Made by a program: the position numbers and the translations under genes. From Variovorax sp. RA8 (GTDB lineage Bacteria; Pseudomonadota; Gammaproteobacteria; Burkholderiales; Burkholderiaceae_C), in the NCBI RefSeq assembly GCF_901827175.1, contig NZ_LR594662.1, positions 3,782,001 to 3,846,000 on the forward strand: DNA of 64,000 nucleotides, read 5' to 3'. Of this stretch, positions 19,393 to 33,014 are shown one piece after another. The notes below the pieces were generated by a model. That model was not told the DNA's origin and ran no database searches. It was given only the letters and a program-made list of their open reading frames with translations. The stretch's first letter is position 1. Every line of letters begins with the position of its first letter.

Positions 19393-20754
19393 ATGAATAT
19401 TCCTCCAACAACGAATGCCGAAGCCGCAGCACCCGCGCACCAGACCTGCGACGTCCTCGTGATCGGCGGCGGTCCCGCAGGCTCCACGGCCGCGGCGCTG
19501 TTGGCGCAGCAGGGCCGCAAGGTGGTGCTGCTCGAGAAGGCGCACCATCCGCGCTTCCACATCGGCGAATCGCTCCTGCCGGCGAACGTGCAGCTGTTCG
19601 ACCGGCTGGGCCTGCGCGAGGAGATCGAGCGCATCGGCATGCCCAAGTGGGGCGTCGAATTCGTCTCGCCCGACCATGAGCACACCGCGATGGTCGAGTT
19701 CGCCGACGCCTGGGACAAGAGCATGCCCTACGCCTGGCAGGTCCGGCGCTCGGAAATGGACGAGATCCTGTTCCGCAACGCCGGCGCCCGCGGCGCGCAG
19801 ACCATCGAAGGCTGCCGCGTGCGCGACGTCCAGTTCGACGCCGAGGGCGCCACCGTGACCGCCCACCTCGACGACGGCGCCGCGCGCAGCTGGCGTGCCC
19901 GCTTCGTGCTCGACGCATCCGGGCGCGACACCTTCCTGTCGAACAAGTTCAAGGCCAAGCAGAAGAACCCGAAGCACAACAGCTCGGCCCTCTTCGGCCA
20001 TTTCCGCAACGCCGACCGGCTGCCGGGCAAGCTCGAGGGCAACATCACCATCTTCTGGTTCGCGCACGGCTGGTTCTGGTACATCCCGCTGGCCGACGGC
20101 ACCACCAGCATCGGCGCCGTCTGCTGGCCTTACTACCTCAAGTCGCGCAGCAAGCCCGTCAAGGATTTCTTCGCCGACACCATCGCGCTGTGCCCGCAGC
20201 TGGCCGCGCGCCTGTCGCAGGCCACGCTGGTCGACGATGCGGTCTACGCCACCGGTAACTATTCGTACACCAGCACGCATTGCAGCGGCGAGCGCTACCT
20301 GATGCTGGGCGACGCCTACAGCTTCATCGACCCGGTGTTCTCATCGGGCGTGTACCTCGCCATGTACAGTGCCTTCGAGAGCGCCGAGGTGGTGACCGCC
20401 GTGCTCGATCGGCCGGCCGAGGCTGCCAAGGCGCGGCAGCGCTTCGAGCGCGACATGCGCAAGGGCCCGCGCGAGTTTTCCTGGTTCATCTTCCGCGTGA
20501 CCAACCCGACCATCCGTGAATTCTTCATGTACCCGCAAAACCCGTTCCGTGTGAAGGAAGCGCTGCTCTCGCTCCTGGCCGGCGACATCTACGGCAAGAC
20601 GCCGATCTGGCGCTCGCTGCGGGTGCTCAAGGCCCTGTACTACCTGGTGTCGGCCGGCCATCCGCGCCGCACCTGGCAGTCCTGGCAGCGGCGGCGCCGG
20701 AACATCCGCGACCTCGGGCCGCTTGCCGGCGAAAACGTGGTCGAGGCCCGGTGA
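19393..20754 (+). CDS. Flavin-dependent halogenase-like oxidoreductase of the pigment cluster
   Basis: A 453-residue FAD protein. The dinucleotide motif GGGPAG is at 25-30, followed by HIGESLLPANV near 58, typical of the halogenase/oxidoreductase family. W227-F-W229-Y-I-P232 matches the WxWxIP motif that marks flavin-dependent halogenases and blocks monooxygenase chemistry. The C-terminal GDAYSFIDPVFSSGVYLAM is the second FAD motif. It opens the plus arm of the cluster. Because xanthomonadins are brominated aryl polyenes, halogenation of the aryl head is a reasonable guess. A related saturase or hydroxylase role is the alternative. A reductase partner is not seen nearby. Confidence 0.75.
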   Translation: MNIPPTTNAEAAAPAHQTCDVLVIGGGPAGSTAAALLAQQGRKVVLLEKAHHPRFHIGESLLPANVQLFDRLGLREEIERIGMPKWGVEFVSPDHEHTAMVEFADAWDKSMPYAWQVRRSEMDEILFRNAGARGAQTIEGCRVRDVQFDAEGATVTAHLDDGAARSWRARFVLDASGRDTFLSNKFKAKQKNPKHNSSALFGHFRNADRLPGKLEGNITIFWFAHGWFWYIPLADGTTSIGAVCWPYYLKSRSKPVKDFFADTIALCPQLAARLSQATLVDDAVYATGNYSYTSTHCSGERYLMLGDAYSFIDPVFSSGVYLAMYSAFESAEVVTAVLDRPAEAAKARQRFERDMRKGPREFSWFIFRVTNPTIREFFMYPQNPFRVKEALLSLLAGDIYGKTPIWRSLRVLKALYYLVSAGHPRRTWQSWQRRRRNIRDLGPLAGENVVEAR

Positions 20755-20829
20755 GCGCCGCCCGGCCGCCCGAAGGCGCGAAGGCCCCCTCGGGGGGCAG
20801 CGCAGTACACGAAGTGACGAGCCTGGGGG
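20753..20829 (+). repeat. Dispersed intergenic repeat, copy A (tandem with copy B)
   Basis: A 77-nt unit that starts at the halogenase stop codon. It contains the stem GCCCCC-TC-GGGGGGC and the motif TACACGAAGTG, then ends in a G-run. Copy B repeats it 84 bp later with two differences. Related copies are at 41979, 44662 and 59479. Confidence 0.85.
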
Positions 20830-20836
20830 CACTATC

Positions 20837-20913
20837 GAGCGCCGCCCGGCCGCCCGAAGGCGCGAAGGCCCCCTCGGGGGGCAGCGCAGTACACGAAGTG
20901 ACAAGCGTGGGGG
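20837..20913 (+). repeat. Dispersed intergenic repeat, copy B
   Basis: A near-exact tandem copy of the 20753 unit (75 of 77 positions by eye), separated from it by CACTATC. It ends 10 bp before the chorismatase ATG, so the final GGGGGAGG may double as ribosome binding site. See copy A and the finding. Confidence 0.85.
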
Positions 20914-20923
20914 AGGTTGGCTT

Positions 20924-21955
20924 ATGAGCGCGAGGGACTTCAATGGGGTGCCGCCGCTGCGCGTCGAGCGGCTGTCGCTGTCCGAAAGCCTGGCATTGTC
21001 CTCAGGGGGACATCCGCCCTTCGGCGCGCTGGGGTACGGCACCCCCGATCACCTGTCGTGGATGCCCACGGTCAACGCCCGCGTGCTCTCTGACGCCGGG
21101 GCGATGGCCGATGTGTGGCATGCCAGCGAACACATCGAGTCCGGCACCACCGGGGTGGTGCGCTGGCGCTGCGACGGACACTGGATGCTGGGCGCCATCG
21201 ACCTCGACGAGGCGCGCGAAGGGGCCGGCCTCACCGAGCTGGCCCACTGGGCCTACCGCGACCTGTTCCAGTCGCTCGCGCAGACGGGTTGCACCCACGT
21301 GCTGCGCATCTGGAACTACCTGCCGCGCATCAATGCCGACGGCGGCGGCCTCGAGCGCTACCGCCAGTTCAACCTGGGCCGCCAGCAGGCCTTCGTCGAG
21401 GCCGGCCAGGCCGCCTTCGAAGGCGCGCCGGCCGCCTGCGCCCTGGGCATCCACCAGGGCGCCCTGTGCATCCGCTTCCTGGCAGGCCGGGTGGCACCGC
21501 TGCCTGTGGAGAACCCGCGGCAGGTGTCGGCCTACCACTACCCGCCCGCCTACGGCCCGCGCTCCCCCACCTTCTCGCGCGCAGCGCTGGCTGCGATCGG
21601 CGGCGGCGACGTGGCGCTGTTCATCTCGGGCACGGCCAGCATCCTCGGGCACGAGACGGTGCATCTGGGCGATGTGCGGGCCCAGACCGAGGAGACGCTG
21701 CGCAACCTCGAAGCCGTGATCGCCGCCGCCAACGAACGCAGCTCCGCACGCTTCGCTCTGGACACGATCGATGCCGTGGTCTACGTGCGCCACGTCGCCG
21801 ACACGCCGGTCGTGCGCGAGGTGCTCGAACGGAAGCTGGGCGCGCATTCCCACACACTGCGCCACGCGGTCTACCTGGAGGCGGACATCTGCCGGCAGGA
21901 CCTGCTGGTGGAGATCGAGGCCCACGCCGTCGCCGGCGGGTCACTGGACGCCTAG
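20924..21955 (+). CDS. Chorismatase, XanB2/Hyg5 type (hydroxybenzoate starter synthesis)
   Basis: A 343-residue protein of the FkbO/Hyg5/XanB2 chorismatase family, which hydrolyses chorismate to 3-hydroxybenzoate and/or 4-hydroxybenzoate or a dihydroxy acid. Visible family segments are LRIWNYLPRIN near 127, the RidA-like fold segment GTASILGHETVHLGD near 228, and CRQDLLVEIE at the C-terminus, where the catalytic Glu is expected. In Xanthomonas, XanB2 supplies the 3-HBA starter for xanthomonadin and 4-HBA for ubiquinone. Placement beside a polyene cluster with no ammonia-lyase fits the same job. Start ATG follows AGGTTGG. Product regiochemistry cannot be read. Confidence 0.8.
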   Translation: MSARDFNGVPPLRVERLSLSESLALSSGGHPPFGALGYGTPDHLSWMPTVNARVLSDAGAMADVWHASEHIESGTTGVVRWRCDGHWMLGAIDLDEAREGAGLTELAHWAYRDLFQSLAQTGCTHVLRIWNYLPRINADGGGLERYRQFNLGRQQAFVEAGQAAFEGAPAACALGIHQGALCIRFLAGRVAPLPVENPRQVSAYHYPPAYGPRSPTFSRAALAAIGGGDVALFISGTASILGHETVHLGDVRAQTEETLRNLEAVIAAANERSSARFALDTIDAVVYVRHVADTPVVREVLERKLGAHSHTLRHAVYLEADICRQDLLVEIEAHAVAGGSLDA

Positions 21956-21981
21956 AAGGTGTGGACGAACCCGGGCTCACC

Positions 21982-22779
21982 ATGAAGCGCCTGCTGCGCT
22001 CGATCTTCTCCCTCCCACTCGCCCTGCTGCTGTACGCCCTGCTGGCGCTGCTGGGCATCATCTCGCTGGTCTGGAACCTGGCCGCGATGCTGCTCTACCC
22101 GGTGCTGCCCGCGCGCACCGGCCGCGCGCTGGGCCGGCGCGTGATCGCGCTGGCCTACCGCGCCTTCTGGGCCACCGCCTCGGCCGCCGGGATGATGCGC
22201 ATCGACGCCGCCTGCCTCGACGCGTTGCGCGAGGAGCGCGGGGTGATCTTCGTCGCCAACCACCCCACCATGCTCGATGCCCTGCTGCTGGTGGCGCGCC
22301 TGCCGCGCAGCGCCTGCATCATGAAGGCCGACCTGATGCGCAACGTCTTCCTCGGCGCCGGAGCGCGGCTCGCGCGCTATATCCGCAACGATTCGGCGCG
22401 CACCATGGTCCGGCTCGCGGTCGAGGACCTGAAGGCAGGCGGCCAGCTGGTGATCTTCCCCGAGGGCACTCGCACCGTGACGCCGCCGCTCAACCCATTT
22501 CGCCCCGGCGTCACGCTGATCGCCAAGCTGGCGCAGGCGCCGATCCAGACCGTGTTCATCGATACCGACTCGCCCTACCTCGGCAAGGGTTGGCCGCTAT
22601 GGCGGGTGCCGCCTCTGCCGATCGTCTTCACGCTCCGCCTGGGCCGGCGCTTCGCGCCCCAGCAGGACAGCGACAGGCTGCTGCGCGAGATCGAACAGTA
22701 TTTCAGACACCCCACGGAACAGCGCGCCACCGACGCGCAGCCCGAATGCCAGCAGTCTCGCGCACCCACCTTGTCCTGA
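21982..22779 (+). CDS. 1-acyl-sn-glycerol-3-phosphate acyltransferase-like (PlsC) protein
   Basis: A 265-residue membrane acyltransferase. A long hydrophobic helix pair lies at about 8-40. The catalytic NHPTMLD (HX4D, His94 and Asp99) and the FPEGTR block are intact. In aryl-polyene clusters such enzymes are thought to attach the polyene acyl chain to a lipid or sugar head. An in-frame GTG at 21961 is an alternative start; neither start has a strong ribosome site. The 3' end overlaps the glycosyltransferase by 34 bp. Confidence 0.82.
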   Translation: MKRLLRSIFSLPLALLLYALLALLGIISLVWNLAAMLLYPVLPARTGRALGRRVIALAYRAFWATASAAGMMRIDAACLDALREERGVIFVANHPTMLDALLLVARLPRSACIMKADLMRNVFLGAGARLARYIRNDSARTMVRLAVEDLKAGGQLVIFPEGTRTVTPPLNPFRPGVTLIAKLAQAPIQTVFIDTDSPYLGKGWPLWRVPPLPIVFTLRLGRRFAPQQDSDRLLREIEQYFRHPTEQRATDAQPECQQSRAPTLS

Positions 22780-23522
22780 TCCCCAGCTACAACACCGGCG
22801 AGCGCCTGTTCTCCACCGTCAGCGCGGCCCGCGCGCAATGGAATCCGGTCTGGGTGGTGGTCGACGGCAGCACCGACGGCACCGGCGAGCGGCTGCAGCA
22901 AATGGCCGCGGCCGACCCTGGCCTGCGCGTCTGGCTGCTGCCGCACAACCAGGGCAAGGGCGCGGCCGTGCTGCACGGACTGCGCGCGGCGCAGGAGGCC
23001 GGCTACACGCATGCGCTCACCATGGATTCGGACGGCCAGCATCCGGCCGACCTGATCCCCGCCTTCATGCAGGCCTCGCAGGCGCGGCCCGAGACGATGG
23101 TGCTGGGTCGCCCGGTCTTCGACGCCTCGGCGCCGCTGCTGCGCGTGCGCGGGCGCAAGGTCTCCAACAGCTGGACCCAGCTCGAGACGCTGTTCGCCGG
23201 CATCGGCGATTCGCTCTACGGCTTCCGCGTCTACCCGGTGGCGGCGCTGATCGCGACCATGGAGCACCAGCCCTGGATGCGCCGCTTCGACTTCGACACC
23301 GAGGCCGTGGTGCGCCTGGCCTGGCGCGGCGTCAAGCCGGTCAACATCGATGCGCCGGTCAAGTACCTCACCGCCGAGGAAGGCGGGGTTTCGCACTTCC
23401 GCTATTTGCGCGACAACGCGCTGCTGACGTGGATGCACACGCGGCTGATGGTTGAGTTCGTGCTGCGCTTGCCGGGTCTGCTGTGGCGCCGGCTGCGCGG
23501 GGCGCCGCCGTTTCAGCGCTGA
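22746..23522 (+). CDS. Glycosyltransferase family 2 (dolichyl-phosphate mannose synthase-like)
   Basis: A 258-residue GT-A glycosyltransferase. The N-terminal LVLIPSYNTGERL is followed by VVVDGSTDGTGERL and TMDSDGQHPADLI, in which the DSD triad binds metal and sugar nucleotide. A short hydrophobic C-terminus suggests membrane association. It probably modifies the lipid anchor or head of the pigment. It ends the plus arm and meets the minus arm ketoreductase tail to tail, 25 bp apart. Confidence 0.82.
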   Translation: MPAVSRTHLVLIPSYNTGERLFSTVSAARAQWNPVWVVVDGSTDGTGERLQQMAAADPGLRVWLLPHNQGKGAAVLHGLRAAQEAGYTHALTMDSDGQHPADLIPAFMQASQARPETMVLGRPVFDASAPLLRVRGRKVSNSWTQLETLFAGIGDSLYGFRVYPVAALIATMEHQPWMRRFDFDTEAVVRLAWRGVKPVNIDAPVKYLTAEEGGVSHFRYLRDNALLTWMHTRLMVEFVLRLPGLLWRRLRGAPPFQR

Positions 23523-23547
23523 CGAATAGGGGGTCGGCTGTCCGCTT

Positions 23548-24279
23548 TCAGATCATCCCGCCGTTGATCGAGATGATCTGCCCCGTGATGTAAGCCGCCT
23601 CATCGCTCGCCAGGAAGCCCGCCAGGGCCGCCACTTCCTCCGGCCTGCCGGCGCGCTTCACAGGCACCAGTTGGTCGATCATCGCCTTGTCGAAGGCGCC
23701 GTCGGCCATTGGCGAGGCGATGATGCCGGGAGCGATCGCATTCACCGTGATGCCGCGCGCCGCGACCTCGAGCGACAGCGCCTTGGTCGCGCTGTTGAGC
23801 GCGCCCTTCGCCGCTGCATAGTTGACCTGGCCGCGGTTGCCCGTGAGGGACGCCACGGACGACATGTTGATGATCCGCCCCCAGCGCGTGCGCAGCATGG
23901 GCAGCAGCAAGGGCTGCGTGACGCGGAAGAAGCCGTTGAGCGAGACGTCGATCACCTTGTGCCACTGCGCCGCGCTCATGCCGGGCAGCACCGCATCGTC
24001 GTGCACGCCGGCGTTGTTGACGAGGATCTGCACGGGCCCGCCCGCCAGGATGCGCTCGCAGGCGGCGCGCGAGGCTTCGTCGCTGGTGAGGTCGAACACA
24101 TGGCATTCGGCCTGGCCGCCAGCGGACCTGATGGCGGCGGCCAACTGCTCGATCGCCTCGGGCTTGCTGTTGGCATGCAGCAGCACCGCGGCGCCATCGC
24201 GCGCCAGGCGCTGTGCGACGGCCGCGCCGAGGGCGCCGCTGGCGCCGGTGATCAATGCACGTTTTCCGTTGAGGCTCAT
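23548..24279 (-). CDS. 3-oxoacyl-ACP reductase, FabG-like (ApeQ-type)
   Basis: A 243-residue SDR, FabG length. TGASGALG at 11-18 binds NADPH, VNNAGVHDD follows, and NYAAAKGAL carries the Tyr-x-x-x-Lys pair. It starts MSLNGKRALITG, which is typical; longer upstream frames lack homology. In the cluster it would reduce the 3-keto group at each elongation. Last gene of the minus arm, after the hotdog dehydratase. Confidence 0.87.
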   Translation of the reverse strand: MSLNGKRALITGASGALGAAVAQRLARDGAAVLLHANSKPEAIEQLAAAIRSAGGQAECHVFDLTSDEASRAACERILAGGPVQILVNNAGVHDDAVLPGMSAAQWHKVIDVSLNGFFRVTQPLLLPMLRTRWGRIINMSSVASLTGNRGQVNYAAAKGALNSATKALSLEVAARGITVNAIAPGIIASPMADGAFDKAMIDQLVPVKRAGRPEEVAALAGFLASDEAAYITGQIISINGGMI

Positions 24280-24295
24280 GATGAGGTCCGCCTGT

Positions 24296-24757
24296 TCAGG
24301 TTTCCATGGCAAGCGGCGTGTTGAGCACGACCACCGCGCGGCCTTCGGCCAGCGCGCGCCCTGCTTCGTCCTTCACCGCGAATTCGTAGAGGATCTGGCT
24401 CGCATCGCCCGAGACGCGTTGCGCATGCACATGCAGCACGCCTTCGATCTCGTCGAGCCGCGCGATGGCCAGGCGCACGTTGCGCGCGCTGGCCAGGAAG
24501 CCGGCAGAAGGCTCGCTGCCCTCCGGCGCGATGAGGCCGCCGTGCAGGGCCATGGCCTGCGCCGCGTACTCGATGGCATTGGGGGCTAGCAGGCCGCCGG
24601 CCGTGCGCAGGGGGTTGTCGGCGTGCCGGTGCGTGCCGGTCGTGCAATGGATGTTGTGGGCGTCCCAGGACTCCAGCCGCTCCAGCAGGCACATGCTGCC
24701 GCTGTGGGGGATCAGGCGCGCGATGCCGGCGCGGTCGAGCTGTTGTGGAGCACTCAT
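24296..24757 (-). CDS. Hotdog-fold 3-hydroxyacyl-ACP dehydratase-like protein (ApeP-type)
   Basis: A 153-residue protein of the FabZ-like/ApeP family. Segments IPHSGSMCLLERLESWD and PNAIEYAAQAMALHGG match the family, with the N-terminal PHSGSMCLL being especially characteristic of polyene-cluster dehydratases. It would form the double bonds. The start overlaps the methyltransferase stop (ATGA). A second dehydratase domain is fused to the AMP ligase at 30357, as expected for a pair acting together. Confidence 0.82.
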   Translation of the reverse strand: MSAPQQLDRAGIARLIPHSGSMCLLERLESWDAHNIHCTTGTHRHADNPLRTAGGLLAPNAIEYAAQAMALHGGLIAPEGSEPSAGFLASARNVRLAIARLDEIEGVLHVHAQRVSGDASQILYEFAVKDEAGRALAEGRAVVVLNTPLAMET

Positions 24758-25512
24758 GACGACGAAGACTCCTTGGCACGGTCTGCGACCAGCAGCACAT
24801 TGGCGAACGGCGTGCCCGCGCTCATCGGGATGCCCTGCACCGGCGAGAAGCCCAGGCCTTGGAGCAGCGTCGTCCATTCGGACAGCGTCCGCCCCCAGGT
24901 CGGCGAGACGCGGTGCCCGCGGATGCGGGTGACGGTGCGATCCACCCACTGGCTGATCGCGAAGCCGCGCCGGCTCGCCGCATCGCCCACGCGCAGCAGC
25001 AGCCTGCCACCCGGTTGCAGCGCCCCGTGCACACGGCGCAGCACGCCTTCCTGCGCGGCGTGGTCCACGTAGTGCAGCACGTCGAGGATCACGACCAGGT
25101 CGCAGGCTGGCATCGCAGCCTTGCACATGTCCTCGCAGACGAAGCGCGGCGCCGGCTCCAGGTGGCCGATGGAGGCCTTCGCACGCGCCACGTCCTTGGG
25201 CATCAGCTCGATGCCCGTGTACTGGGCCGCGGCCGGCGTGGCAGCCCAGGCAGCGGGCCAGCGGCCAGGCTGCGCCTGCATGCCGGCCATGGCCGAGAGC
25301 AGGCTGGCGAACAGGCCCTGGCCGCAGCCGATGTCCACCACGCGGCGGCGCTCGCCGATCAGGCCGCGCTCGATCAACCCGCGGAACACGGGGTCGCGGC
25401 CCAACTTGCCACGGGCGAAGTGCCAGGCGAAGTTGCCGGCCTTCTTGTACGGCGCGGTGGCCGCTTCATGCAGTTGACGCCAGGCGGCGTCGGTCGAGAG
25501 GCTGTCGTTCAT
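24754..25512 (-). CDS. Class I SAM-dependent methyltransferase
   Basis: A 252-residue methyltransferase. VVDIGCGQGLFASLL near residue 60 is motif I, and LVVILDVLHYVDH near 140 is motif IV/post-I. Aryl-polyene clusters often carry a methyltransferase that decorates the aryl ring (ApeB-like). O- or C-methylation of the hydroxybenzoate-derived head is the likely use, but not provable here. It sits between the deacetylase and the dehydratase. Confidence 0.83.
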   Translation of the reverse strand: MNDSLSTDAAWRQLHEAATAPYKKAGNFAWHFARGKLGRDPVFRGLIERGLIGERRRVVDIGCGQGLFASLLSAMAGMQAQPGRWPAAWAATPAAAQYTGIELMPKDVARAKASIGHLEPAPRFVCEDMCKAAMPACDLVVILDVLHYVDHAAQEGVLRRVHGALQPGGRLLLRVGDAASRRGFAISQWVDRTVTRIRGHRVSPTWGRTLSEWTTLLQGLGFSPVQGIPMSAGTPFANVLLVADRAKESSSS

Positions 25513-25519
25513 GCAGGGG

Positions 25520-26359
25520 TCAGGGGGTGAGGGCTTGCGGCAGCGTCACTGCGCGCAAGCCATCGGTGCGAAGGCGCTCGAGCAGAAGAGGCAGGACCTC
25601 GAGCACCACCGGGCGTCCGCCGGCCGTGCGCGCGGCATGGCCGTCGTGCAGCAGCAGGATGTCGCCCGCCCTCAGGTCTTTGGTGAGGCGCGCAAGCACA
25701 GTGGCCGCATCGCGCTCGCGCGTGTCGAAACCGCGGCGCGTCCAGCTCACCAGCACCAGGCCCAGGCGGTGCAGCACCGGCGCGAGAAAAGGGTTGCGCA
25801 GCCCGGCCGGCGCGCGGAAGCAGATCGGGCGCTGGCCCGTCACTTCCTGCAGCAGCCGCTGCGCGCGTTCGATCTCGGTATGGAAGCCGCGCGGCCCGAG
25901 GAAGGAGAAGTTGTGGCGATGCCGCGCCGTGTGGTTCTGGATGCTGTGGCCGCGCGCGACGATCTCGCGTGCCAAGGCCGGGTGCTCTCGCACGCGCTCG
26001 GCGATGCAGAAGAAAGTGGCGCGCTGGCCCTCGGCGTCGAGCAGGTCCAGCACCTGCGGCGTGACTGCGGGATCGGGGCCGTCATCGATGGTGATCGCGA
26101 CCTCGCCGCGCGCCGCCGAGGCCGCCGGCAGCCGCGTGATGTTCGGCCCCAGCAGGCTGCTGCGCGGCGTCAGGCCCGCGGCGGTGATCAGCACATGGTT
26201 CAGCACCACCGCACCGATGGCCCAGGGCACCGCCCCCGGCACGAAAAGCGCCGCCGCGAGCGCCAGCAGGTGCCAGCCGACACTGGCGCGCACGACGGGC
26301 GGCCAACGCCACGATCCGGAGGCAGGAAGGGCTTGGGACATCGGCGCCGATTCTCCCAT
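25520..26359 (-). CDS. Polysaccharide deacetylase (NodB-homology, carbohydrate esterase 4)
   Basis: A 279-residue protein with two N-terminal hydrophobic helices (about 22-50), so the catalytic domain is probably membrane tethered. NodB motif 1 is AITIDDGPDP, motif 2 is HSIQNHTARH (the metal His pair), and motif 3 is RAPAG. The start ATG overlaps the MMPL stop as TGATG (26357-26361), favouring this over an inner ATG at 26341. It may trim an acetyl or acyl group from a sugar anchor or cell-wall glycan. Its role in pigment display is unknown. Confidence 0.82.
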   Translation of the reverse strand: MGESAPMSQALPASGSWRWPPVVRASVGWHLLALAAALFVPGAVPWAIGAVVLNHVLITAAGLTPRSSLLGPNITRLPAASAARGEVAITIDDGPDPAVTPQVLDLLDAEGQRATFFCIAERVREHPALAREIVARGHSIQNHTARHRHNFSFLGPRGFHTEIERAQRLLQEVTGQRPICFRAPAGLRNPFLAPVLHRLGLVLVSWTRRGFDTRERDAATVLARLTKDLRAGDILLLHDGHAARTAGGRPVVLEVLPLLLERLRTDGLRAVTLPQALTP

Positions 26360-28752
26360 CAGCGATGTGGCGCGGAGGCACCCGCCGGCCCGCGCGCGAA
26401 GGCGGCCGACAGCAGCAGCGCCAGCAGCGCACCGGGCGCGACCACGCGGCCGATGGCCGACAGCGCCGGGATGTCGGAGATCGCGATCAGCGTGAAGGAC
26501 ACCACGGTCGTCAGGTTGGCCAGCAGCAGCGAGGCCAAGGTGTCCTCGTCGGCACGGCCGGTCTCGCGCAGCTGGTCGAAGAAGAGCGCGTAGTTCGAGC
26601 CCACCGCCACCACCAGCAGCAGGCCCACCAGGTGCAGGATGCCGAGCGGCACCTGCAGCACGGCCAGCCCGCCCAGCGTGAGCAGCACCGCGACCAGCAA
26701 CGGCTCGCACACTGCCAGCAGCCGGCGCCCCGAGCGCAGCCAGGCGCCCAGCAGCAAGACCACCGCGAGCGCGCCCAGCATGACCTGCACGAAGGCCTCG
26801 TGCAGATAGCGCCGGTAGAGGCTGCGCAACTCGTCGCCCACGTTGACCACCTGCACCTCGGGCACCTCGGCGAGCGCGGCCTCGAGCCGCTTCGCGTCGA
26901 AGCGCTCGCCGGGATGCAGCGCGACCAGCGTCGACCAACCGCCGCCGGGGCGCTCGAACATCAGTGCGCTGACCACCGCGTCCAGCGGCCCGCCCGCCAG
27001 ATCGGAGCGGCGGATCATGGGCTGGCCGCGCGCCTTCTCCACATCGGCCAGGAAGGGCGCGAGCCGGCTCGCCGGCAGGGGCAGGCCCTGGGTGGCTTCG
27101 GCCAGCCGCGCCTTCAAGGTCGCGGCATCGGGCAGGCTGGCGATGCGCGCCGCCTGAGCGGCCTCGCTGGGCAGCATGCGGGTGACGCTCTCGAAGCCGG
27201 CGAGCTCGCCCTGGCCTACCAGCGTCTCGAGCTTCGCGGAGGCGGCCTCGGTGTTGCGCAGGGCCGCCTGCTCGTCCGCGCCGCGCACCACCACGAGCGT
27301 GCCACCATCGCTGGCGCCGATGTCGGCGCGCAGCTCCTCGTCGAGCTGCTGCGCCGCCTTGGGCACCGGGCTCATCGCGCTCAGGTCGGCGCGCCACAGG
27401 TGGCCGCCCTGCCAGAGCACCAGGCCCAGCGCCGCAATGCCGAGGCCGGCGAAGACCAGGCGCAGCCGTGGCAGCGCCCGCACGATCAGGCCCGCGATGC
27501 GCGCCATCTGCCGCCGCATGCCCATGCCGGCTGCGCCGTCTGGCGCCAGCACCGGCAGCACGAAGCGAGCGACCAGCGCCGCGGCGACCAGTCCGGCCAG
27601 CGAGAACACGCCCAGCTGCGCCAGGCCCGGGAAGCCTGAGAACACCAGCGCCGCGAAGCCGCAGACCGAGGTCAGCAGGCCCAGCCGCACCGTTGGCCAA
27701 TGGATTTCGCGCCAGCGCATCCACCCGGTGCCCGGCACGGCGGCGCCGCGCGCCTGGATCAGGTAGTAGATCGCGTAGTCCACGGTCTCGCCGATCAGCG
27801 TACTGCCGAAGCCCATGGTGAGGCCGTGCACCTCGCCGAACACCAGGCTCACCGCCGCCGTGCCGCCGACCACGCCGGTGGCCACCGGCAGCAGCGCCAC
27901 CACCAGCGCGCGCGGCGAGGCGAAGGCCAGCAGCAGCAAGGCGCCCATCACGATGCCGCCGACGGTGGCGAGCTGGATGGCCTCGTGCTTGATTTGGTCG
28001 CGGCTCTGCACCGAGAACACGGGCGCGCCGGTCAGCTGCAAGCGCGGGCCGGCGCCGTTCATCTCGCGCGTGGCGGCGTCGAACGCCTGCTGGACGCGCG
28101 CGATCGCTTGCGCCTGCGCGTCCAGGTCGCTGCCCGCTGCATGGGTGGTGGCCAGGATCAGCGCCCGCGGCGCGCTGCGCGAGACCCACACGCCCTCCTC
28201 GCTGCGCGGCGAGCTAGCCGGGATCAGGCCCTCGGCGATGCGCTGGGTCTCGCCGGTGGGATCGCGCTCCAGCAGCGGCTTGACCAGGTTGCCGGCCGGC
28301 GTGCCCAGCAGCGACAGCGTGTCGCCGATGGCATCGCGCAGGCCCGCCGCCGTGAAGCGCTCGGGCGCGATGTCGGGCGCCAGCTGGTAGCGATGCTCGA
28401 AGAGCCAGGTGCCCGCCTCCTTCCAGTCGCCGGTCTCGCCGTTCTGCACCTGGTCGAAGAGCTTGCTCTCGCGCATCGATGCCGCGACGGCGCGCGACAC
28501 AGCCCCGCGCTGCCCGGCATCCTTGCCGCCTTCGATGCCGATGAAGACGGTGCGCGAGGCGATGCCGCTTTGCAGCTGCTCGATCAGCACGCGCTGCCGC
28601 TCGTCCGGGCTCGCGGGCAGGAAGGCCGAGAGGTCGGCGCTGAAATGCGTGCGCGCGATGAGCGCGATGCCGGCCGCCAGCGCCAGCAGCCAGATGACGA
28701 TGGCCAGCGCGTGGCGCCCCCGGCCGGACGCTGCTGCCTCGGGCCGGCTCAC
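26359..28752 (-). CDS. MMPL/RND-family exporter (ApeN-type)
   Basis: A 797-residue protein with the RND/MMPL plan: helix at about 15-35, a large periplasmic domain, a helix cluster near 250-420, a second helix and periplasmic domain, then a C-terminal helix cluster. The segment VDYAIYYLIQARG is typical of MMPL proteins. The start is GTG at 28752, which overlaps the LolA-like stop (GTGA). Homologues in aryl-polyene and xanthomonadin clusters (XanF) move the polyene product toward the outer membrane. Confidence 0.85.
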   Translation of the reverse strand: MSRPEAAASGRGRHALAIVIWLLALAAGIALIARTHFSADLSAFLPASPDERQRVLIEQLQSGIASRTVFIGIEGGKDAGQRGAVSRAVAASMRESKLFDQVQNGETGDWKEAGTWLFEHRYQLAPDIAPERFTAAGLRDAIGDTLSLLGTPAGNLVKPLLERDPTGETQRIAEGLIPASSPRSEEGVWVSRSAPRALILATTHAAGSDLDAQAQAIARVQQAFDAATREMNGAGPRLQLTGAPVFSVQSRDQIKHEAIQLATVGGIVMGALLLLAFASPRALVVALLPVATGVVGGTAAVSLVFGEVHGLTMGFGSTLIGETVDYAIYYLIQARGAAVPGTGWMRWREIHWPTVRLGLLTSVCGFAALVFSGFPGLAQLGVFSLAGLVAAALVARFVLPVLAPDGAAGMGMRRQMARIAGLIVRALPRLRLVFAGLGIAALGLVLWQGGHLWRADLSAMSPVPKAAQQLDEELRADIGASDGGTLVVVRGADEQAALRNTEAASAKLETLVGQGELAGFESVTRMLPSEAAQAARIASLPDAATLKARLAEATQGLPLPASRLAPFLADVEKARGQPMIRRSDLAGGPLDAVVSALMFERPGGGWSTLVALHPGERFDAKRLEAALAEVPEVQVVNVGDELRSLYRRYLHEAFVQVMLGALAVVLLLGAWLRSGRRLLAVCEPLLVAVLLTLGGLAVLQVPLGILHLVGLLLVVAVGSNYALFFDQLRETGRADEDTLASLLLANLTTVVSFTLIAISDIPALSAIGRVVAPGALLALLLSAAFARGPAGASAPHR

Positions 28753-29345
28753 GATGCGCCGCGCACCGGCGTGATGGCCATGACAGAGCGGTCGCCGCCG
28801 ATGAACTCCATCTCGACGCCGAGCACCTCGCCCGCGCGGCCGGTCAGGCGCAGCGAGCGCACCTGGGCAGCCAGCCTCTCGTCGATGGGCACCAGATCCA
28901 GCGCCCACTTGTCGGCCGTGCCCGTGAGCGTGCTGCGGAAGTAGCGCCGAAGGGTCTGCGCATTGCCGTTCAAGGTGCTGCGCATGGCTTCGACCATGCC
29001 CAGCAGCTCGGGCATGCTGTCCAGCGTCATCGTGCGGGTGCGACCGCTGCGCGACAGGGTGAGGGTGTTGCCGTCGACCGACATGGTCTCGGGCCGGGGC
29101 GTGAGCGTTCGCCGCGTCAGCCGGTCGGGCGCCTGGAAGCTCAGCGTGCCGCTCGCGTCCAGCGGCCCTTCGATGCCGCGCACGAAGCGCTGCTCGGTAA
29201 AGCGCGCCTCGCCGTTCTTCTGCCGGGCGAGCAGGCCCATCAGCTCGGGCAGGTCGAAGGCCCACGCGGAGGATGCCGTGAAAGCCAGCGCCGCCACCAC
29301 CCAGCGGCACCAGCGCTCAATCCGAATCTTCGAGCCAGAAGTCAT
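28749..29345 (-). CDS. LolA-like outer membrane lipoprotein carrier protein (ApeM-type)
   Basis: A 198-residue periplasmic protein. A signal peptide ends in SSAWA (about residue 29). The mature part begins FDLPELMGLLARQKNGEARFTEQRF, matching the LolA-like fold seen in polyene clusters. The start at 29345 overlaps the 3' end of the acyltransferase gene by 29 bp. It likely shuttles the hydrophobic product across the periplasm together with the MMPL protein encoded next. Confidence 0.82.
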   Translation of the reverse strand: MTSGSKIRIERWCRWVVAALAFTASSAWAFDLPELMGLLARQKNGEARFTEQRFVRGIEGPLDASGTLSFQAPDRLTRRTLTPRPETMSVDGNTLTLSRSGRTRTMTLDSMPELLGMVEAMRSTLNGNAQTLRRYFRSTLTGTADKWALDLVPIDERLAAQVRSLRLTGRAGEVLGVEMEFIGGDRSVMAITPVRGAS

Positions 29346-30360
29346 GAAAATTGAACCAGTTGTACGGGTAGGCGCGGCACAGGGCTTCGAGCCGCGCGAC
29401 ATAGCTTTCGAGCGCGGCGCGGATGCGACGTTCGCGCTCGGCCGGATCCGACACGCGATCGCTGAAGTCGGCCAGCGGCTCGAAATGGACATCGTAGCGC
29501 GCGCCCCCCACATAAAGGCCCGCCATGAAGAACACCTTGCGCCGCAGCAGCGCGGCCAGCCGGAACGGACCGTCGTTGATCAGGGCCGGATGCCCGAGAA
29601 ACGGCAGCGTGATGCTGTTGCCGCGCTGCTGGCCCGCCTCCTCCGGGCCCGGCAGCGTGCGGTCGGCCAGCAGGCCCGCGAGCCCGCCGCCGTCCAGCCA
29701 GTCGCGCAGGTCCAGCATCGAATGAGGCCGGCCGAGGGCGATGATGTGCGGCCGCAGGCCGGGCTGCGCAATGGCATCGAGCACCGCGGTGATCTGCTGT
29801 GCGTTGTCCTGGTACATCAGCATCGCGAGCCGCAGGTCCTTGGGACGGCCGCTCTGGTGCTTGCAGGCGCCCATGGCCTCGAAGCTGCCGATGTGCGCGC
29901 CGAGCATGAAGGCGCCGCGTCCCGCGGCCACCTCGGCTTCGACCGGCACGTTGCCATGCACGCGCACGTCGAACAGGTCCATGCGCCCCCGCAGGAAATA
30001 GATGCGGTCGAGCACGGTGGACGCAAAGGCGTGCAGCAGCCGGTACCCATCGGACCAGCCCGCGCGCGGCCCGATGGCCCGGAACAGGTAGCGCTTGATG
30101 TGCCGGCGCGGGGCGGGAGAGAACAGCAGGAAGTACAGGCAGATCGGATGCAGCACCAGCCGCGCCAGCGGGCGGCCGCAGCGGATCGCGATCCAGCAGA
30201 TCACGCGCAGCGCCAGCATGTTGCTGCGCTCCGGCGTGCGTGACCAGTCGGCTCGGCGCGATTTCGCATCGCCGGCCTCGGGTGGCTGTGCCACGCTCAC
30301 CGGAATGTCCTCGCCTTCGGCGACGGTGCTGTTCGCCTTCGGAGCGGCGGTGCGGCTCAT
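29317..30360 (-). CDS. LpxL-like lysophospholipid/lipid A acyltransferase
   Basis: A 347-residue acyltransferase of the HtrB/LpxL family with a membrane helix near 65-85. The catalytic His-x4-Glu is in GAHIGSFEAMG near residue 155. A Pro/Ala-rich N-terminal 45 residues look disordered. In the cluster it probably joins the polyene chain to its lipid carrier rather than acting in lipid A synthesis. Its ATG overlaps the stop of the AMP-ligase gene (ATGA, 30357-30360). Confidence 0.82.
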   Translation of the reverse strand: MSRTAAPKANSTVAEGEDIPVSVAQPPEAGDAKSRRADWSRTPERSNMLALRVICWIAIRCGRPLARLVLHPICLYFLLFSPAPRRHIKRYLFRAIGPRAGWSDGYRLLHAFASTVLDRIYFLRGRMDLFDVRVHGNVPVEAEVAAGRGAFMLGAHIGSFEAMGACKHQSGRPKDLRLAMLMYQDNAQQITAVLDAIAQPGLRPHIIALGRPHSMLDLRDWLDGGGLAGLLADRTLPGPEEAGQQRGNSITLPFLGHPALINDGPFRLAALLRRKVFFMAGLYVGGARYDVHFEPLADFSDRVSDPAERERRIRAALESYVARLEALCRAYPYNWFNFHDFWLEDSD

Positions 30361-32060
30361 GACGCTCCGCCGGGGGTCCAGCGGCCGCTCGCGGCGACCA
30401 CCTCCGCCACCCGCACCTCGAAGCGCAGCCCGCGCGAGGCGCCGGTCTCGGGGCTGAGGTCGATGCGCAGCGTGCTGCCCGGGCGCACCGGCGCCAGGAA
30501 CTTGGCCGCGGCCAGCGTCGGCCGCGGGCCCAGGCGGGCCGCCAGTGCGGGTACGCGTTGGGCGGCCTCCAGCACCTCCGACAGCAGCAAGGCGCCGGGC
30601 AGCAGCGGCTGGCCCGGGAAGTGGCCCGCGAAAACCGGGTGGTCTGCCGGTACCTCGTGCGTGAGCTGCACCGGCGCGCCGTCCGGGGCGAGCTGCGCCA
30701 GCGCGAACTCGCGCAGGGCACGCGCCGTCAGCTTGCCGGTGCCTTCGCGCGGGAAGGCGTTCACATGCACCACGCGGCGCGGCACGAAGACCGCCTCGAG
30801 ACGCTCGCGCAGCGCCGCGACGATGGCGTGGGCATCGAGCTTGGGCGCAACCACGAAGGCGACCGGGCGCACCACGCCGTCGGTCACGTCGTCGGGCAGC
30901 CAGAAGGCGCCATCCTCCACGCCCGGAATGCTGTTGAGGTGATGGTTGAGGTAGCCCAGCGAGCTGCGCCGGCCGGCGACGTGGATCAGGTCGTTGGCGC
31001 GCCCGAGCAGGCGGAAACGGCGGTCGTCGAGCAGCTCCAGCACGTCGGCCATCGGCGTCGGCTCGGGCACGAAGTCGCCGGCGAAGACGAAGCGCTCCGC
31101 GCCCGCGGCGTCACGCTCGGCATGCACGCGGATCTCGCCGAAGGTCTCCCAGACCTCGCTGCGCGTCGGCCGCCGCGTCGCGACCTGGCCTGATTCGGTG
31201 CTGCCGTAGATCTCGATCAGCTGGCCGCCCATGGCCTGCTCGGCCTGCGCAGCGAGCTGAGGCGAGAGCGGCGCGGTGGCCGAGAGGATCAAGTCCACCG
31301 GCGGCAGCGCAATGCCGGAGAGCAGCAGCGTCTTGAGGTGGAAGGGCGTGGTGACCAGCGCGCGGGGCTGCGGCACCGAGGCCAGCGCCTGGGCGACGTC
31401 CGCCGGGAAGAAGGGCCGGCCGCTGTCGAAGGCGGCACCGCCGAGCATCGCCAGCAGGGCCGAGGATTCGAGGCCGTAGCTGTGCTGCACCGGCACGGTA
31501 GCCACCAGCGTCAGGCCGGCCAGCGAGGGGCGCCCGAGCAGTTCCGCCAGCCGGGCTACCGCGGCAGCCACATCACCCACCAGCGTCTTCCAGGACTTGG
31601 CATGGGGCTGCGGCACGCCGGTGGAGCCGGAAGTCAGCAGGCTCACGGCATGCAGGCCGCCGCCGATCTCCGGCACCGGCTGCGCACTCGCGCCGCCCGG
31701 CGGCGGCCGGTGCTCGACGAGGGTGCGCGACATGCCTGGGGTGGCGACCTCCGGGTCGTCCACCAGCGCATAGGTGCGGCCGCCCGGCTCGACCAGCCGC
31801 GCCAGCGTGTCGGGCCGCGCATCCGGAGGCAGCAGGCTGGCCTGGCCGCGCACCAGCGCCGCTGCGAGCCCCAGCGCGAAGGCATAGCGATCGCTGCAGA
31901 GGTTCACCACCGGGCCACCCTCCGGCAGTTGCAGCGCCAGGCGCGCCACGTCGGCCAGGAACTCGCGTGCGCTGACCGGCACGCCGGCGCGCCAGGCGAG
32001 GGGCGCGTCCGGATCGCGCTCGCTCAGAAGCGGAAGAAGGTCGAGGCCAGTCACATTCAT
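30357..32060 (-). CDS. Acyl-AMP ligase fused to a FabA/FabZ-like dehydratase (ApeH-ApeI fusion)
   Basis: A 567-residue two-domain protein. Residues 1 to about 450 are an adenylate-forming ligase with LTSGSTGVPQP (A3), EIYGSTESGQV (A5) and the C-terminal catalytic Lys segment REGTGKLTA. Residues about 460-567 are a hotdog dehydratase with ADHPVFAGHFPGQPLLPG, the FabA/Z active-site His segment. The ligase would load the hydroxybenzoate starter onto the ACP; the second domain would dehydrate. In many clusters these are separate genes. The start overlaps the COG4648 stop (ATGA). Confidence 0.87.
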   Translation of the reverse strand: MNVTGLDLLPLLSERDPDAPLAWRAGVPVSAREFLADVARLALQLPEGGPVVNLCSDRYAFALGLAAALVRGQASLLPPDARPDTLARLVEPGGRTYALVDDPEVATPGMSRTLVEHRPPPGGASAQPVPEIGGGLHAVSLLTSGSTGVPQPHAKSWKTLVGDVAAAVARLAELLGRPSLAGLTLVATVPVQHSYGLESSALLAMLGGAAFDSGRPFFPADVAQALASVPQPRALVTTPFHLKTLLLSGIALPPVDLILSATAPLSPQLAAQAEQAMGGQLIEIYGSTESGQVATRRPTRSEVWETFGEIRVHAERDAAGAERFVFAGDFVPEPTPMADVLELLDDRRFRLLGRANDLIHVAGRRSSLGYLNHHLNSIPGVEDGAFWLPDDVTDGVVRPVAFVVAPKLDAHAIVAALRERLEAVFVPRRVVHVNAFPREGTGKLTARALREFALAQLAPDGAPVQLTHEVPADHPVFAGHFPGQPLLPGALLLSEVLEAAQRVPALAARLGPRPTLAAAKFLAPVRPGSTLRIDLSPETGASRGLRFEVRVAEVVAASGRWTPGGAS

Positions 32061-32695
32061 TGCCGTGCCGCCGGGTCGACCGGCGCGCTGTAGAAGGCGC
32101 GCACCGTGTCGATCAGGCGGGTGCGCTCGAATTCGGGATGCAGCCGGTAGCGCAGCAGATACTCGCCCACGAAGAGGATTCCAACCATCAGGGGCGTGAG
32201 CAGGTTGGCGAGCACCGACCAGGCAGCGAAGGACATCGTGGCATACACCATCACCGAGGCCAGCACCAGCAGCGCGAAGTACACGGTCCAGACCCGGGTC
32301 ACGCGCCAGGTGTACTCGCGCATCCCGGGCGACAGCGGGTGGATGCGTGCGGCGAACTGGCCGATCAGCGACAGCCGGTCGCGCCGCAGCGTGCCGCCGA
32401 ACCAGCCGCACAGCAGCGCATTGATGCCCACGTGCTGCAGCATGTAGAGCCGGTTGGGGTCGCCCGCATCGCCGCGCAGCACCAGCGCGAATCCGAGCAC
32501 GCCCACCGCCGCCGCGATCGCCAGGCCCCAGCCGCCGAAACGGCTACCCGCCAGCCCCAGCGCCGTCAGCCACAGCGGACCGAGCAGCACCCCCACCGCC
32601 CAGGGCTCGGCGGCATGGAAGAGCATCATCCAATGGGAGACACCGGCATAGGCCACCCCCGCCAACAGCAGGAGCGCCATGCGCCATCGAGACAT
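32057..32695 (-). CDS. COG4648 membrane protein of aryl-polyene clusters (ApeG-type)
   Basis: A 212-residue integral membrane protein with about six hydrophobic segments (6-25, 33-50, 57-75, 85-100, 130-150, 157-175). The segment QHVGINALLCGWFGGTLR is characteristic of the COG4648 family that recurs in polyene pigment clusters. No catalytic role is known to me. It lies between the ACP and the ligase fusion in a tight operon. Confidence 0.8.
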   Translation of the reverse strand: MSRWRMALLLLAGVAYAGVSHWMMLFHAAEPWAVGVLLGPLWLTALGLAGSRFGGWGLAIAAAVGVLGFALVLRGDAGDPNRLYMLQHVGINALLCGWFGGTLRRDRLSLIGQFAARIHPLSPGMREYTWRVTRVWTVYFALLVLASVMVYATMSFAAWSVLANLLTPLMVGILFVGEYLLRYRLHPEFERTRLIDTVRAFYSAPVDPAARQ

Positions 32696-32705
32696 GGATC
32701 AGGCG

Positions 32706-33014
32706 TCAGGAATCGCCGCGATTCTGGGCGACGTGGGCTGCGAGGCTGCGCAGGGACTGGAAGATCTGCTGGTTGCGCTCGTCGTCCGAGCGCAGCTGGA
32801 AGCCGTACTTGCGCGAGACCTCGAGCGCGACCTCGAGGATGTCGATCGAATCGAGCCCCAGTCCTTCACCGTACAACGGCGCCGTCGGCGCGATCTCGGA
32901 GGGTGCGATCTCGAGATTCAGCGACTCCACCAGAAGCACGGCCAGCTCGTTCTCCAGAGTGGACTGTTCGGGTGCATCGCCAAGGGCGGAAATGGGGGGC
33001 TGGGTCGATGACAA
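32706..33014 (-). CDS. Acyl carrier protein
   Basis: A 102-residue acidic carrier protein. The attachment motif GLDSIDIL puts the phosphopantetheine on Ser56. The sequence is longer than primary ACP (about 78) because of an N-terminal extension rich in Pro/Ser/Glu. Many aryl-polyene clusters have two ACPs; only one is seen here. First gene of the minus arm, so the arm's promoter should lie in the 110-bp gap to the divergent ATPase gene. Confidence 0.87.
   Translation of the reverse strand: MSSTQPPISALGDAPEQSTLENELAVLLVESLNLEIAPSEIAPTAPLYGEGLGLDSIDILEVALEVSRKYGFQLRSDDERNQQIFQSLRSLAAHVAQNRGDS

What the first reader, a model, noticed from the sequence alone, without database searches (positions are those of the whole stretch)
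19393..33014. Xanthomonadin/aryl-polyene-type cluster without any ketosynthase
Starter synthase, ligase, ACP, ketoreductase, two dehydratase domains, acyltransferases, MMPL exporter, LolA and COG4648 genes are all here, bounded by yebC on one side and a HerA-like ATPase on the other. Known aryl-polyene and xanthomonadin clusters carry several ketosynthase genes. I checked every gene between 19393 and 33014 and none has a ketosynthase fold or active-site Cys motif. Either the condensing enzymes are at another locus, or the system borrows FabB/FabF, or the product is not a full polyene.
Basis: partly seen in the sequence, partly recalled or inferred. Interest (0 to 1): 0.75.

Follow-up and report, generated by a model that had tools for sequence, protein, structure and literature searches.

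The report
Pigment cluster with its condenser elsewhere
This Variovorax gene cluster for an aryl-polyene pigment really lacks its chain-building enzyme, but the genome keeps one at a second, distant locus, apparently after a spare copy took over and the original copy was lost from the cluster.

Summary
The genome's nearest named relatives are Variovorax. On the same contig, about 3.37 Mb away (C1:427,330-429,449), lie a KS and a half-size chain-length factor (CLF) whose best solved relatives are ApeO and ApeC, followed by a halogenase-like flavoenzyme. A third locus (C1:280,171-282,385) holds a FabF-like KS, a second ACP and a PAP2 protein; in 9 of 77 genus genomes this KS sits beside the chorismatase. 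Relatives explain the gap: other Burkholderiales carry a KS-CLF pair ("A") between the methyltransferase and dehydratase genes, and the window lacks exactly that piece. The distant pair ("B") is not pair A moved, but a separate lineage (100/100 support) that in two relatives still lies in the same cluster as A. Ligase and ApeO-type KS occur in the same 55 of 250 family genomes. So a known kind of pathway, spread over three loci, with its condensing module replaced. Activity and pigment are inferred. Unlinked loci and the Variovorax KS-CLF pair are already in print; the replacement I did not find there.

The parts
19393..20754 (+). flavin-dependent halogenase-like protein (453 aa, start uncertain), with a WFWYIP stretch
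   Evidence: PF04820 117 bits; motif by script; the motif's meaning is recalled
20924..21955 (+). FkbO/Hyg5/XanB2-type chorismatase (start uncertain, 20723-20924): supplies the hydroxybenzoate starter
   Evidence: PF21168 139 bits; TIGR04444 231 bits, below its cut-off of 325
21982..22779 (+). PlsC-type acyltransferase
   Evidence: PF01553 60 bits
22746..23522 (+). family 2 glycosyltransferase
   Evidence: PF00535 67 bits
23548..24279 (-). ketoreductase (FabG-like SDR)
   Evidence: PF13561 176 bits
24296..24757 (-). second dehydratase, ApeP-like by homology
   Evidence: no model reached; 58% identical to the C-terminal part of P0192; ApeP-like only below cut-off in homologues
24754..24757 (-). 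4-base overlap of methyltransferase and dehydratase genes: the junction at which relatives carry the KS-CLF pair A
   Evidence: gene calls, gene-order maps, junction widths
24754..25512 (-). SAM methyltransferase
   Evidence: PF13649 48 bits
25520..26341 (-). polysaccharide-deacetylase-family protein
   Evidence: PF01522 100 bits
26359..28752 (-). MMPL/HAE3-like exporter
   Evidence: PF03176 19.5 bits, just under cut-off; TIGR00921 67 bits, below cut-off
28749..29345 (-). LolA-like carrier
   Evidence: PF19574 65 bits
29317..30360 (-). LpxL/lysophospholipid-acyltransferase-like protein; its 5' end lies on a dispersed repeat
   Evidence: weak NCBIfam matches; repeat
30357..32060 (-). AMP-dependent aryl ligase fused to a hot-dog dehydratase domain
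   Evidence: PF00501, PF13193, PF07977; C-terminal part matches 6qsr_A at E 1.5e-4
   Evidence: syntenic in relatives; no family match
32706..33014 (-). acyl carrier protein
   Evidence: PF00550 32.5 bits; NF006617 130 bits, above cut-off

Best explanation
The interval is the main locus of a hydroxybenzoate-primed type II polyketide pathway for an aryl-polyene (xanthomonadin/arcuflavin-like) pigment; the condensing enzymes are encoded elsewhere in the same genome. Proposed working: the chorismatase makes hydroxybenzoate; the ligase loads it on an ACP; the KS_B:CLF_B heterodimer made at C1:427,330-429,449 extends it with malonyl units; ketoreductase and the two dehydratases make the double bonds; the FabF-like KS with its own ACP at C1:280,171-281,630 is a second condensing unit, in the place that ApeR and the second ACP take in aryl-polyene clusters; methyltransferase, halogenase(s), acyl- and glycosyltransferases finish the product and the MMPL/LolA-type proteins export it. 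History: an ancestral cluster held KS-CLF pair A between methyltransferase and dehydratase; a second, paralogous pair B with a flavoenzyme existed (still in one cluster with A in some relatives); B came to lie elsewhere and A was lost. Shown: absence of a KS here, presence, family and position of the distant genes, intact KS catalytic residues, gene order in relatives, A/B separation, co-occurrence. Inferred: every enzyme activity, joint function of the three loci, the product, and the order of events.
For: Whole-genome KS search: PF02801 finds five, two of them in frames of about 2,470 codons, one beside FabH/FabD/FabG genes, one at 280 kb, one at 428 kb. KS_B best PDB match 6qsp_A (E 2.4e-71), then 7f28_B; it passes the cut-off of NF006618 (506 against 407 bits); CLF_B matches only 6qsp_B and 7f28_A, named ApeO and ApeC. 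KS_B keeps the Cys-His-His pattern (STACSS, HGT, GHT). Pair A between methyltransferase and dehydratase in relatives: 16 of 87 measured junctions are 1.95-2.14 kb wide (15 with the KS between them, and one that I take to be L194), 71 of 87 are closed, -19 to +29 bases. A and B separate with 100/100 support in the KS tree (55 rows) and 100 in the CLF tree (53 rows). A and B in one cluster: L194, L197. Ligase and ApeO-type KS: the same 55 of 250 family genomes. In 8 of 9 named genomes whose cluster shows the closed junction, the one KS match elsewhere is 74-98% identical to KS_B. KS280 travels with ACP and PAP2 and lies 3.5-3.8 kb from the chorismatase in 9 of 77 genus genomes.
Against: No expression, mutant or product data. 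Co-occurrence counts genomes, not independent events. The Polaromonas MAG (L084) has the closed junction but its only KS match is 55% identical, the level of type A. Five further family genomes have ligase and KS not linked for reasons I did not resolve (G133, G159, G174, G254, G284). KS280 is FabF-like, not ApeR-like: its best PDB matches are FabF, AbApeR (7f27_A) scores lower. The second dehydratase and the exporter are below curated cut-offs.
Confidence: 0.83

Rival explanations
1. The pathway borrows the fatty-acid FabF for condensation; the distant KS-CLF pair serves another product.
For: FabF is present (C1:4995k) and the interval has no KS.
Against: The ApeO-type KS and the ligase occur in exactly the same 55 of 250 family genomes. 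In one search, 16 of the 80 named loci carry a related KS and CLF inside the cluster. CLF_B has only ApeC-type matches in the PDB.
Confidence: 0.05
2. The distant pair is the ancestral in-cluster pair (A) that was simply moved, not a paralogue that took over.
For: The gap in the window is exactly the size and place of pair A, and a KS-CLF pair is found elsewhere.
Against: Pair B falls outside all 25 A-type KSs, with 100/100 support, and outside all 24 A-type CLFs; G085, G180 and G280 hold both A (in the cluster) and B (on another contig), and L194 and L197 hold both in one cluster.
Confidence: 0.04
3. The FabF-like KS at C1:280k with its ACP is the main condensing enzyme; pair B is accessory.
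For: KS280 is single-copy in 77 of 81 genus genomes and lies in the cluster in 9 of them; it has Cys and His motifs of an active KS.
Against: No strong KS280 match in G006, G027 (both nearly complete), while KS_B is listed for 80 of 81. In the Acinetobacter system ApeO-ApeC alone makes the full-length polyene and ApeR mainly raises throughput (passages of PMC8358021).
Confidence: 0.05
4. The cluster no longer makes a polyene; the loss of the KS pair is decay.
For: No KS in the locus; no product known for this strain.
Against: All called genes are open and syntenic with relatives at high identity; the pathway's other parts are kept in the genus together with KS_B.
Confidence: 0.03

Closest known systems
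Arcuflavin pathway of Azoarcus sp. BH72 (arc loci; PMC3949708, outline and sections 3, 18, 22 read)
   Same: Chorismatase ArcB, ligase ArcT, KS ArcK with KS-N-domain protein ArcJ, reductase, dehydratases, GT, acyltransferases, LolA, exporter, methyltransferase, deacetylase, ACP, halogenase; genes lie in two loci that are not physically linked and both were needed for pigment. The paper lists Variovorax paradoxus S110 among organisms with such clusters.
   Different: In Azoarcus the KS pair stands with chorismatase, GT and halogenase and the ligase block is the separate part; in the window chorismatase and ligase blocks are together and only the condensing enzymes are away. Whether Figure 2D or Table S2 of that paper shows the Variovorax split I could not see.
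Xanthomonadin-like pigment cluster of Lysobacter enzymogenes, ORF17-ORF16 pair (PMC3691225; abstract passage and section 8 read)
   Same: KS followed by a half-size CLF-like protein needed for pigment; the legend of its Figure 5 names Variovorax paradoxus among the examples, with a halogenase and without the GT, as at locus B.
   Different: It does not, in what I read, say that the Variovorax pair stands apart from the rest of the pathway, nor distinguish two lineages of the pair.
ApeO-ApeC and ApeR of aryl-polyene clusters (Xenorhabdus, Acinetobacter; passages of PMC8358021; PDB 6qsp, 7f28, 7f27)
   Same: KS plus one-thiolase-fold CLF; two KSs and two ACPs per pathway.
   Different: There all are in one cluster and ApeR is FabB-like; here three loci and the second KS is FabF-like.

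Membership tests
Aryl-polyene / xanthomonadin-type type II PKS pathway | Aromatic starter made by a XanB2/FkbO/Hyg5-type chorismatase | tested here: met
   PF21168 139 bits; TIGR04444 231 bits, below its cut-off 325
Aryl-polyene / xanthomonadin-type type II PKS pathway | AMP ligase for the aryl starter, fused to a dehydratase domain | tested here: met
   PF00501, PF13193 and PF07977 in one frame, all above cut-off; 6qsr_A
Aryl-polyene / xanthomonadin-type type II PKS pathway | ApeO:ApeC-type KS plus half-size CLF within the interval | tested here: not met
   no KS match in the window
Aryl-polyene / xanthomonadin-type type II PKS pathway | ApeO:ApeC-type KS plus half-size CLF in the genome | tested here: met
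   C1:427,330-429,449
Aryl-polyene / xanthomonadin-type type II PKS pathway | Second KS (ApeR) and second ACP | tested here: inconclusive
   FabF-like KS and ACP at C1:280k; not ApeR-like by PDB score; joint function inferred from gene order in relatives
Aryl-polyene / xanthomonadin-type type II PKS pathway | Ketoreductase | tested here: met
   PF13561 176 bits
Aryl-polyene / xanthomonadin-type type II PKS pathway | ApeP-type second dehydratase | tested here: inconclusive
   homologues match ApeP-like below cut-off
Aryl-polyene / xanthomonadin-type type II PKS pathway | Polyene product | not testable with these tools
   needs extraction, absorbance and MS
Arcuflavin-type polyene-dialkylresorcinol hybrid | DarA/DarB pair | tested here: inconclusive
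   StlD/DarB-like protein at C1:4018k below NCBIfam cut-offs (294 against 450, 231 against 550); DarA not searched

The most novel reading that the evidence does not exclude
The condensing engine of this pigment pathway is an exchangeable module: in Variovorax and two other genus-level groups the original KS-CLF pair was replaced by a paralogous pair with its own halogenase at its own locus, and the swap changed the chemistry. Pair B's CLF has a cysteine at a position that is serine in nearly all sampled A-type CLFs and that one alignment places opposite the KS nucleophile, so the 'factor' might itself carry or pass on an acyl group or set a different chain length.
Probability: 0.2. Interest if true: 0.6.

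Novelty: new variant of a known kind. Interest (0 to 1): 0.4.

Why it matters
Cluster-based genome mining sees this locus as a polyene cluster without a condensing enzyme, or misses the distant pair; the genus is common in soil and on roots (recalled). The natural series (A only; A and B in one cluster; A in the cluster and B elsewhere; B alone elsewhere) makes the exchange of a KS-CLF module directly testable by comparing products and swapping pairs between laboratory strains.

Tried and rejected
A KS hidden in the interval was looked for with Pfam on ORFs of the interval on both strands and with six-frame whole-genome searches; rejected. 'Pair A was moved' was my first reading after and was dropped. 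The matching N-termini of the acyltransferase (window 29317-30360) and CLF_B first looked like the scar of a rearrangement; one search gave 55 matches across the genome, so it is a dispersed repeat and no such evidence. The cysteine of CLF_B as a nucleophile: MAFFT sets it against the KS cysteine, but profile-profile comparison found no real alignment of the two families (probability 0.8%) and the AlphaFold model of a relative (P0003, mean pLDDT 81, pTM 0.84) has low confidence there, so it is kept only as a speculation. A scan of viral contigs with the chorismatase found no relative. A carotenoid source of yellow colour: CrtI family, no match over the cut-off, 22 weak ones. Dropped before counts: one 248-residue KS fragment (L154) and HSPs under 250 residues (KS) or 120 (CLF) before the trees; columns filled in under 30% of rows. 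The search with handles is not independent: five places coincide (G334/G014, G336/G064, G331/G256, G338/G324, G345/G232).
Full report
What is there. The window is C1:3782001-3846000 of a 7.42-Mb genome in four contigs. Its nearest named relatives are Variovorax (ligase 96% identical in Variovorax sp. WDL1). The interval holds, on the + strand, a halogenase-like flavoprotein, a chorismatase, an acyltransferase and a GT2, and convergent to them on the - strand ketoreductase, dehydratase, methyltransferase, deacetylase, MMPL-like exporter, LolA, a second acyltransferase, ligase-dehydratase, a membrane protein and an ACP.

No KS here, but in the genome. PF02801 finds five KSs in the genome and none in the window; PF00109 finds these five and ten short matches, none in the window. 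Two are in frames of about 2,470 codons, one lies at C1:4995k with FabH, a malonyltransferase-like and a FabG-like gene close by, one at C1:280k and one at C1:428k. The last, KS_B (C1:428,196-429,449, start uncertain), has 6qsp_A as best solved relative and 7f28_B next; it passes the NCBIfam cut-off of NF006618 and keeps STACSS, HGT and GHT motifs. Directly behind it, CLF_B (C1:427,330-428,199) matches PF13723 and, in the PDB, only 6qsp_B and 7f28_A. describes 6qsp as ApeO with its chain length factor ApeC. A profile of 29 CLFs finds the same two chains, and the model of the CLF_B relative P0003 has 6qsp_B as first Foldseek match (TM 0.60 by query, rmsd 7.5). Then follows a flavoprotein with a halogenase-family match and a WVWLIP stretch. 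KS_B and chorismatase are 3.37 Mb apart on C1, 3.13 Mb the other way if C1 is a circle.

A third locus. At C1:280,171-282,385 lie a FabF-like KS (KS280), an ACP and a PAP2 protein. KS280 is found once in 77 of 81 genus genomes; in 9 it lies 3.5-3.8 kb from the chorismatase, in 24 others on the same contig but at least 0.56 Mb away, in the remaining 44 on another contig. In the five fetched loci where it is in the cluster (L042, L050, L051, L111, L112) ACP and PAP2 come with it, and in G133 (L197) the three lie beside a cluster that holds both KS pairs. Aryl-polyene clusters have two KSs and two ACPs (passages of PMC8358021), so this trio is the likely second condensing unit; by sequence it is FabF-like and not an ApeR.

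What relatives show. Gene-order maps of 122 loci and 20 more: in Rubrivivax, Inhella, Azohydromonas, Pseudorhodoferax and others a KS-CLF pair stands between methyltransferase and dehydratase. Of 87 loci in which that junction could be measured, 15 are 1,950-2,135 bases wide with the KS between, one is 2,020 (I take it to be L194, whose better KS match is its other copy), and 71 are closed (-19 to +29 bases). The widths rest on tblastn ends projected to full length.

Two lineages. In a tree of 67 KSs the 28 pairs that stand alone and two in-cluster copies form one group (97), the 25 A-site copies another (77), KS280-type a third (96). Without KS280 types and FabF (55 rows, careful search) A and B part with 100/100; for the CLFs (53 rows) with 100. 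So the Variovorax pair is not pair A moved. States seen: A and B in one cluster (G274, G133; by spacing and identity probably also the Inhella and Rubrivivax genomes G341 and G343); A in the cluster and B on another contig (G085, G180, G280); no A and B elsewhere (G000 and two further genus members, G151, G256, G170, G271). In G133 KS_B and CLF_B are one 711-codon frame.

Co-occurrence. In 250 family genomes the ApeO-type KS (E<=1e-80; A or B) and the ligase (E<=1e-60) are found in the same 55 and in none of the other 195; 43 of the 55 have them within 20 kb, 12 not: seven of the 'B elsewhere' kind and five unresolved (G133, G159, G174, G254, G284). The Fisher value of the script (1e-56) ignores kinship. 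In the genus, a KS_B match is listed for 80 of 81 genomes (the exception, G068, is 58% complete); where chorismatase and KS_B share a contig (23 genomes) they are at least 1.35 Mb apart, and in none are they within 20 kb. Of 20 KS loci fetched, 20 have KS and CLF, 16 the flavoprotein and 19 a response regulator and histidine kinase next to it; one locus is cut by a contig end.

A prediction tested. If a cluster lacks A, its genome should hold B elsewhere. Of nine named genomes whose locus shows the closed junction (Xenophilus azovorans, four Pseudacidovorax, an Aquabacterium MAG, two Variovorax, a Polaromonas MAG) eight have one KS match, 74-98% identical to KS_B; the Polaromonas MAG has one of 55% only, which does not fit or reflects an incomplete bin. 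For Xenophilus sp. L33 (86%) the junction was not in view. Eight genomes with A in the locus each have a 52-56% match, two of them also one of 60 or 66%. Some of these genomes were already.

How it most likely works, and what is in print. See the best explanation. Unlinked loci for such a pigment, both essential, are known from Azoarcus, and V. paradoxus S110 is listed there as a bearer of such clusters (PMC3949708, sections 18 and 22). The KS-CLF pair with a halogenase and without the GT is drawn for V. paradoxus in PMC3691225 (legend and section 8 read; figure not seen). I did not find the replacement of pair A by B, or the three-locus layout, in six searches; supplements and figures were not available to me, and most subscription papers are not in the library.

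The cysteine. At the position that MAFFT sets against the KS nucleophile, the 120 listed B-side CLF relatives all have Cys, the 120 listed A-side ones 114 Ser, 3 Ala, 2 Gly, 1 Cys (each list is the 120 nearest of thousands). In the fetched loci 28 of 29 B rows and 0 of 24 A rows have Cys (counted by eye). hhalign does not support the KS-CLF alignment. The half-size CLF lacks the KS histidines' half, so it cannot condense alone; a role of the cysteine is open.

Confidence. That the condensing enzymes of this pathway lie at the two distant loci: 0.83 for the whole statement, lower for details of product and for the role of KS280.

Noticed in passing
window 30295-30360 (5' end of 29317-30360) and C1:428,118-428,203: A dispersed repeat of about 65 bases, 55 matches in the genome, often in tandem at about 60 bases. 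In 17 of 20 fetched loci my simple gene caller shows no ORF over it, in two it lies inside an ORF and in one opposite an ORF. Copies cover the start of the acyltransferase and of CLF_B, giving both the N-terminus MSRTAAPK.
   Followed up: partly
Variovorax loci L039, L043, L044, L048, L049, L054: In 6 of 20 fetched Variovorax cluster loci the GT2 is not followed by the ketoreductase block within the stretch: the chorismatase half and the ligase half are themselves apart (in G031 109 kb apart, in G044 on different contigs). The window has the two halves together.
   Followed up: partly
window 19393-20754: The in-cluster halogenase is patchy in the genus: seen in 6 of 20 fetched Variovorax loci.
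   Followed up: no
L200 (C1:4018k): StlD/DarB-like beta-ketosynthase in a 616-codon frame, longer than the family model; a hint of a dialkylresorcinol branch as in arcuflavin.
   Followed up: partly
L197:6904-9039: In G133 KS_B and CLF_B are one 711-codon reading frame: a natural fusion, or a missed frameshift.
   Followed up: no
L014:10478-11229: A FitA-like antitoxin with an adjacent small gene (reads like a PIN toxin, not tested) lies directly upstream of KS_B.
   Followed up: no
L014:4638-6547: Response regulator and histidine kinase downstream of pair B, kept in 19 of 20 fetched Variovorax KS loci; Azoarcus also has such a pair (ArcW, ArcX) by its ligase block.
   Followed up: no
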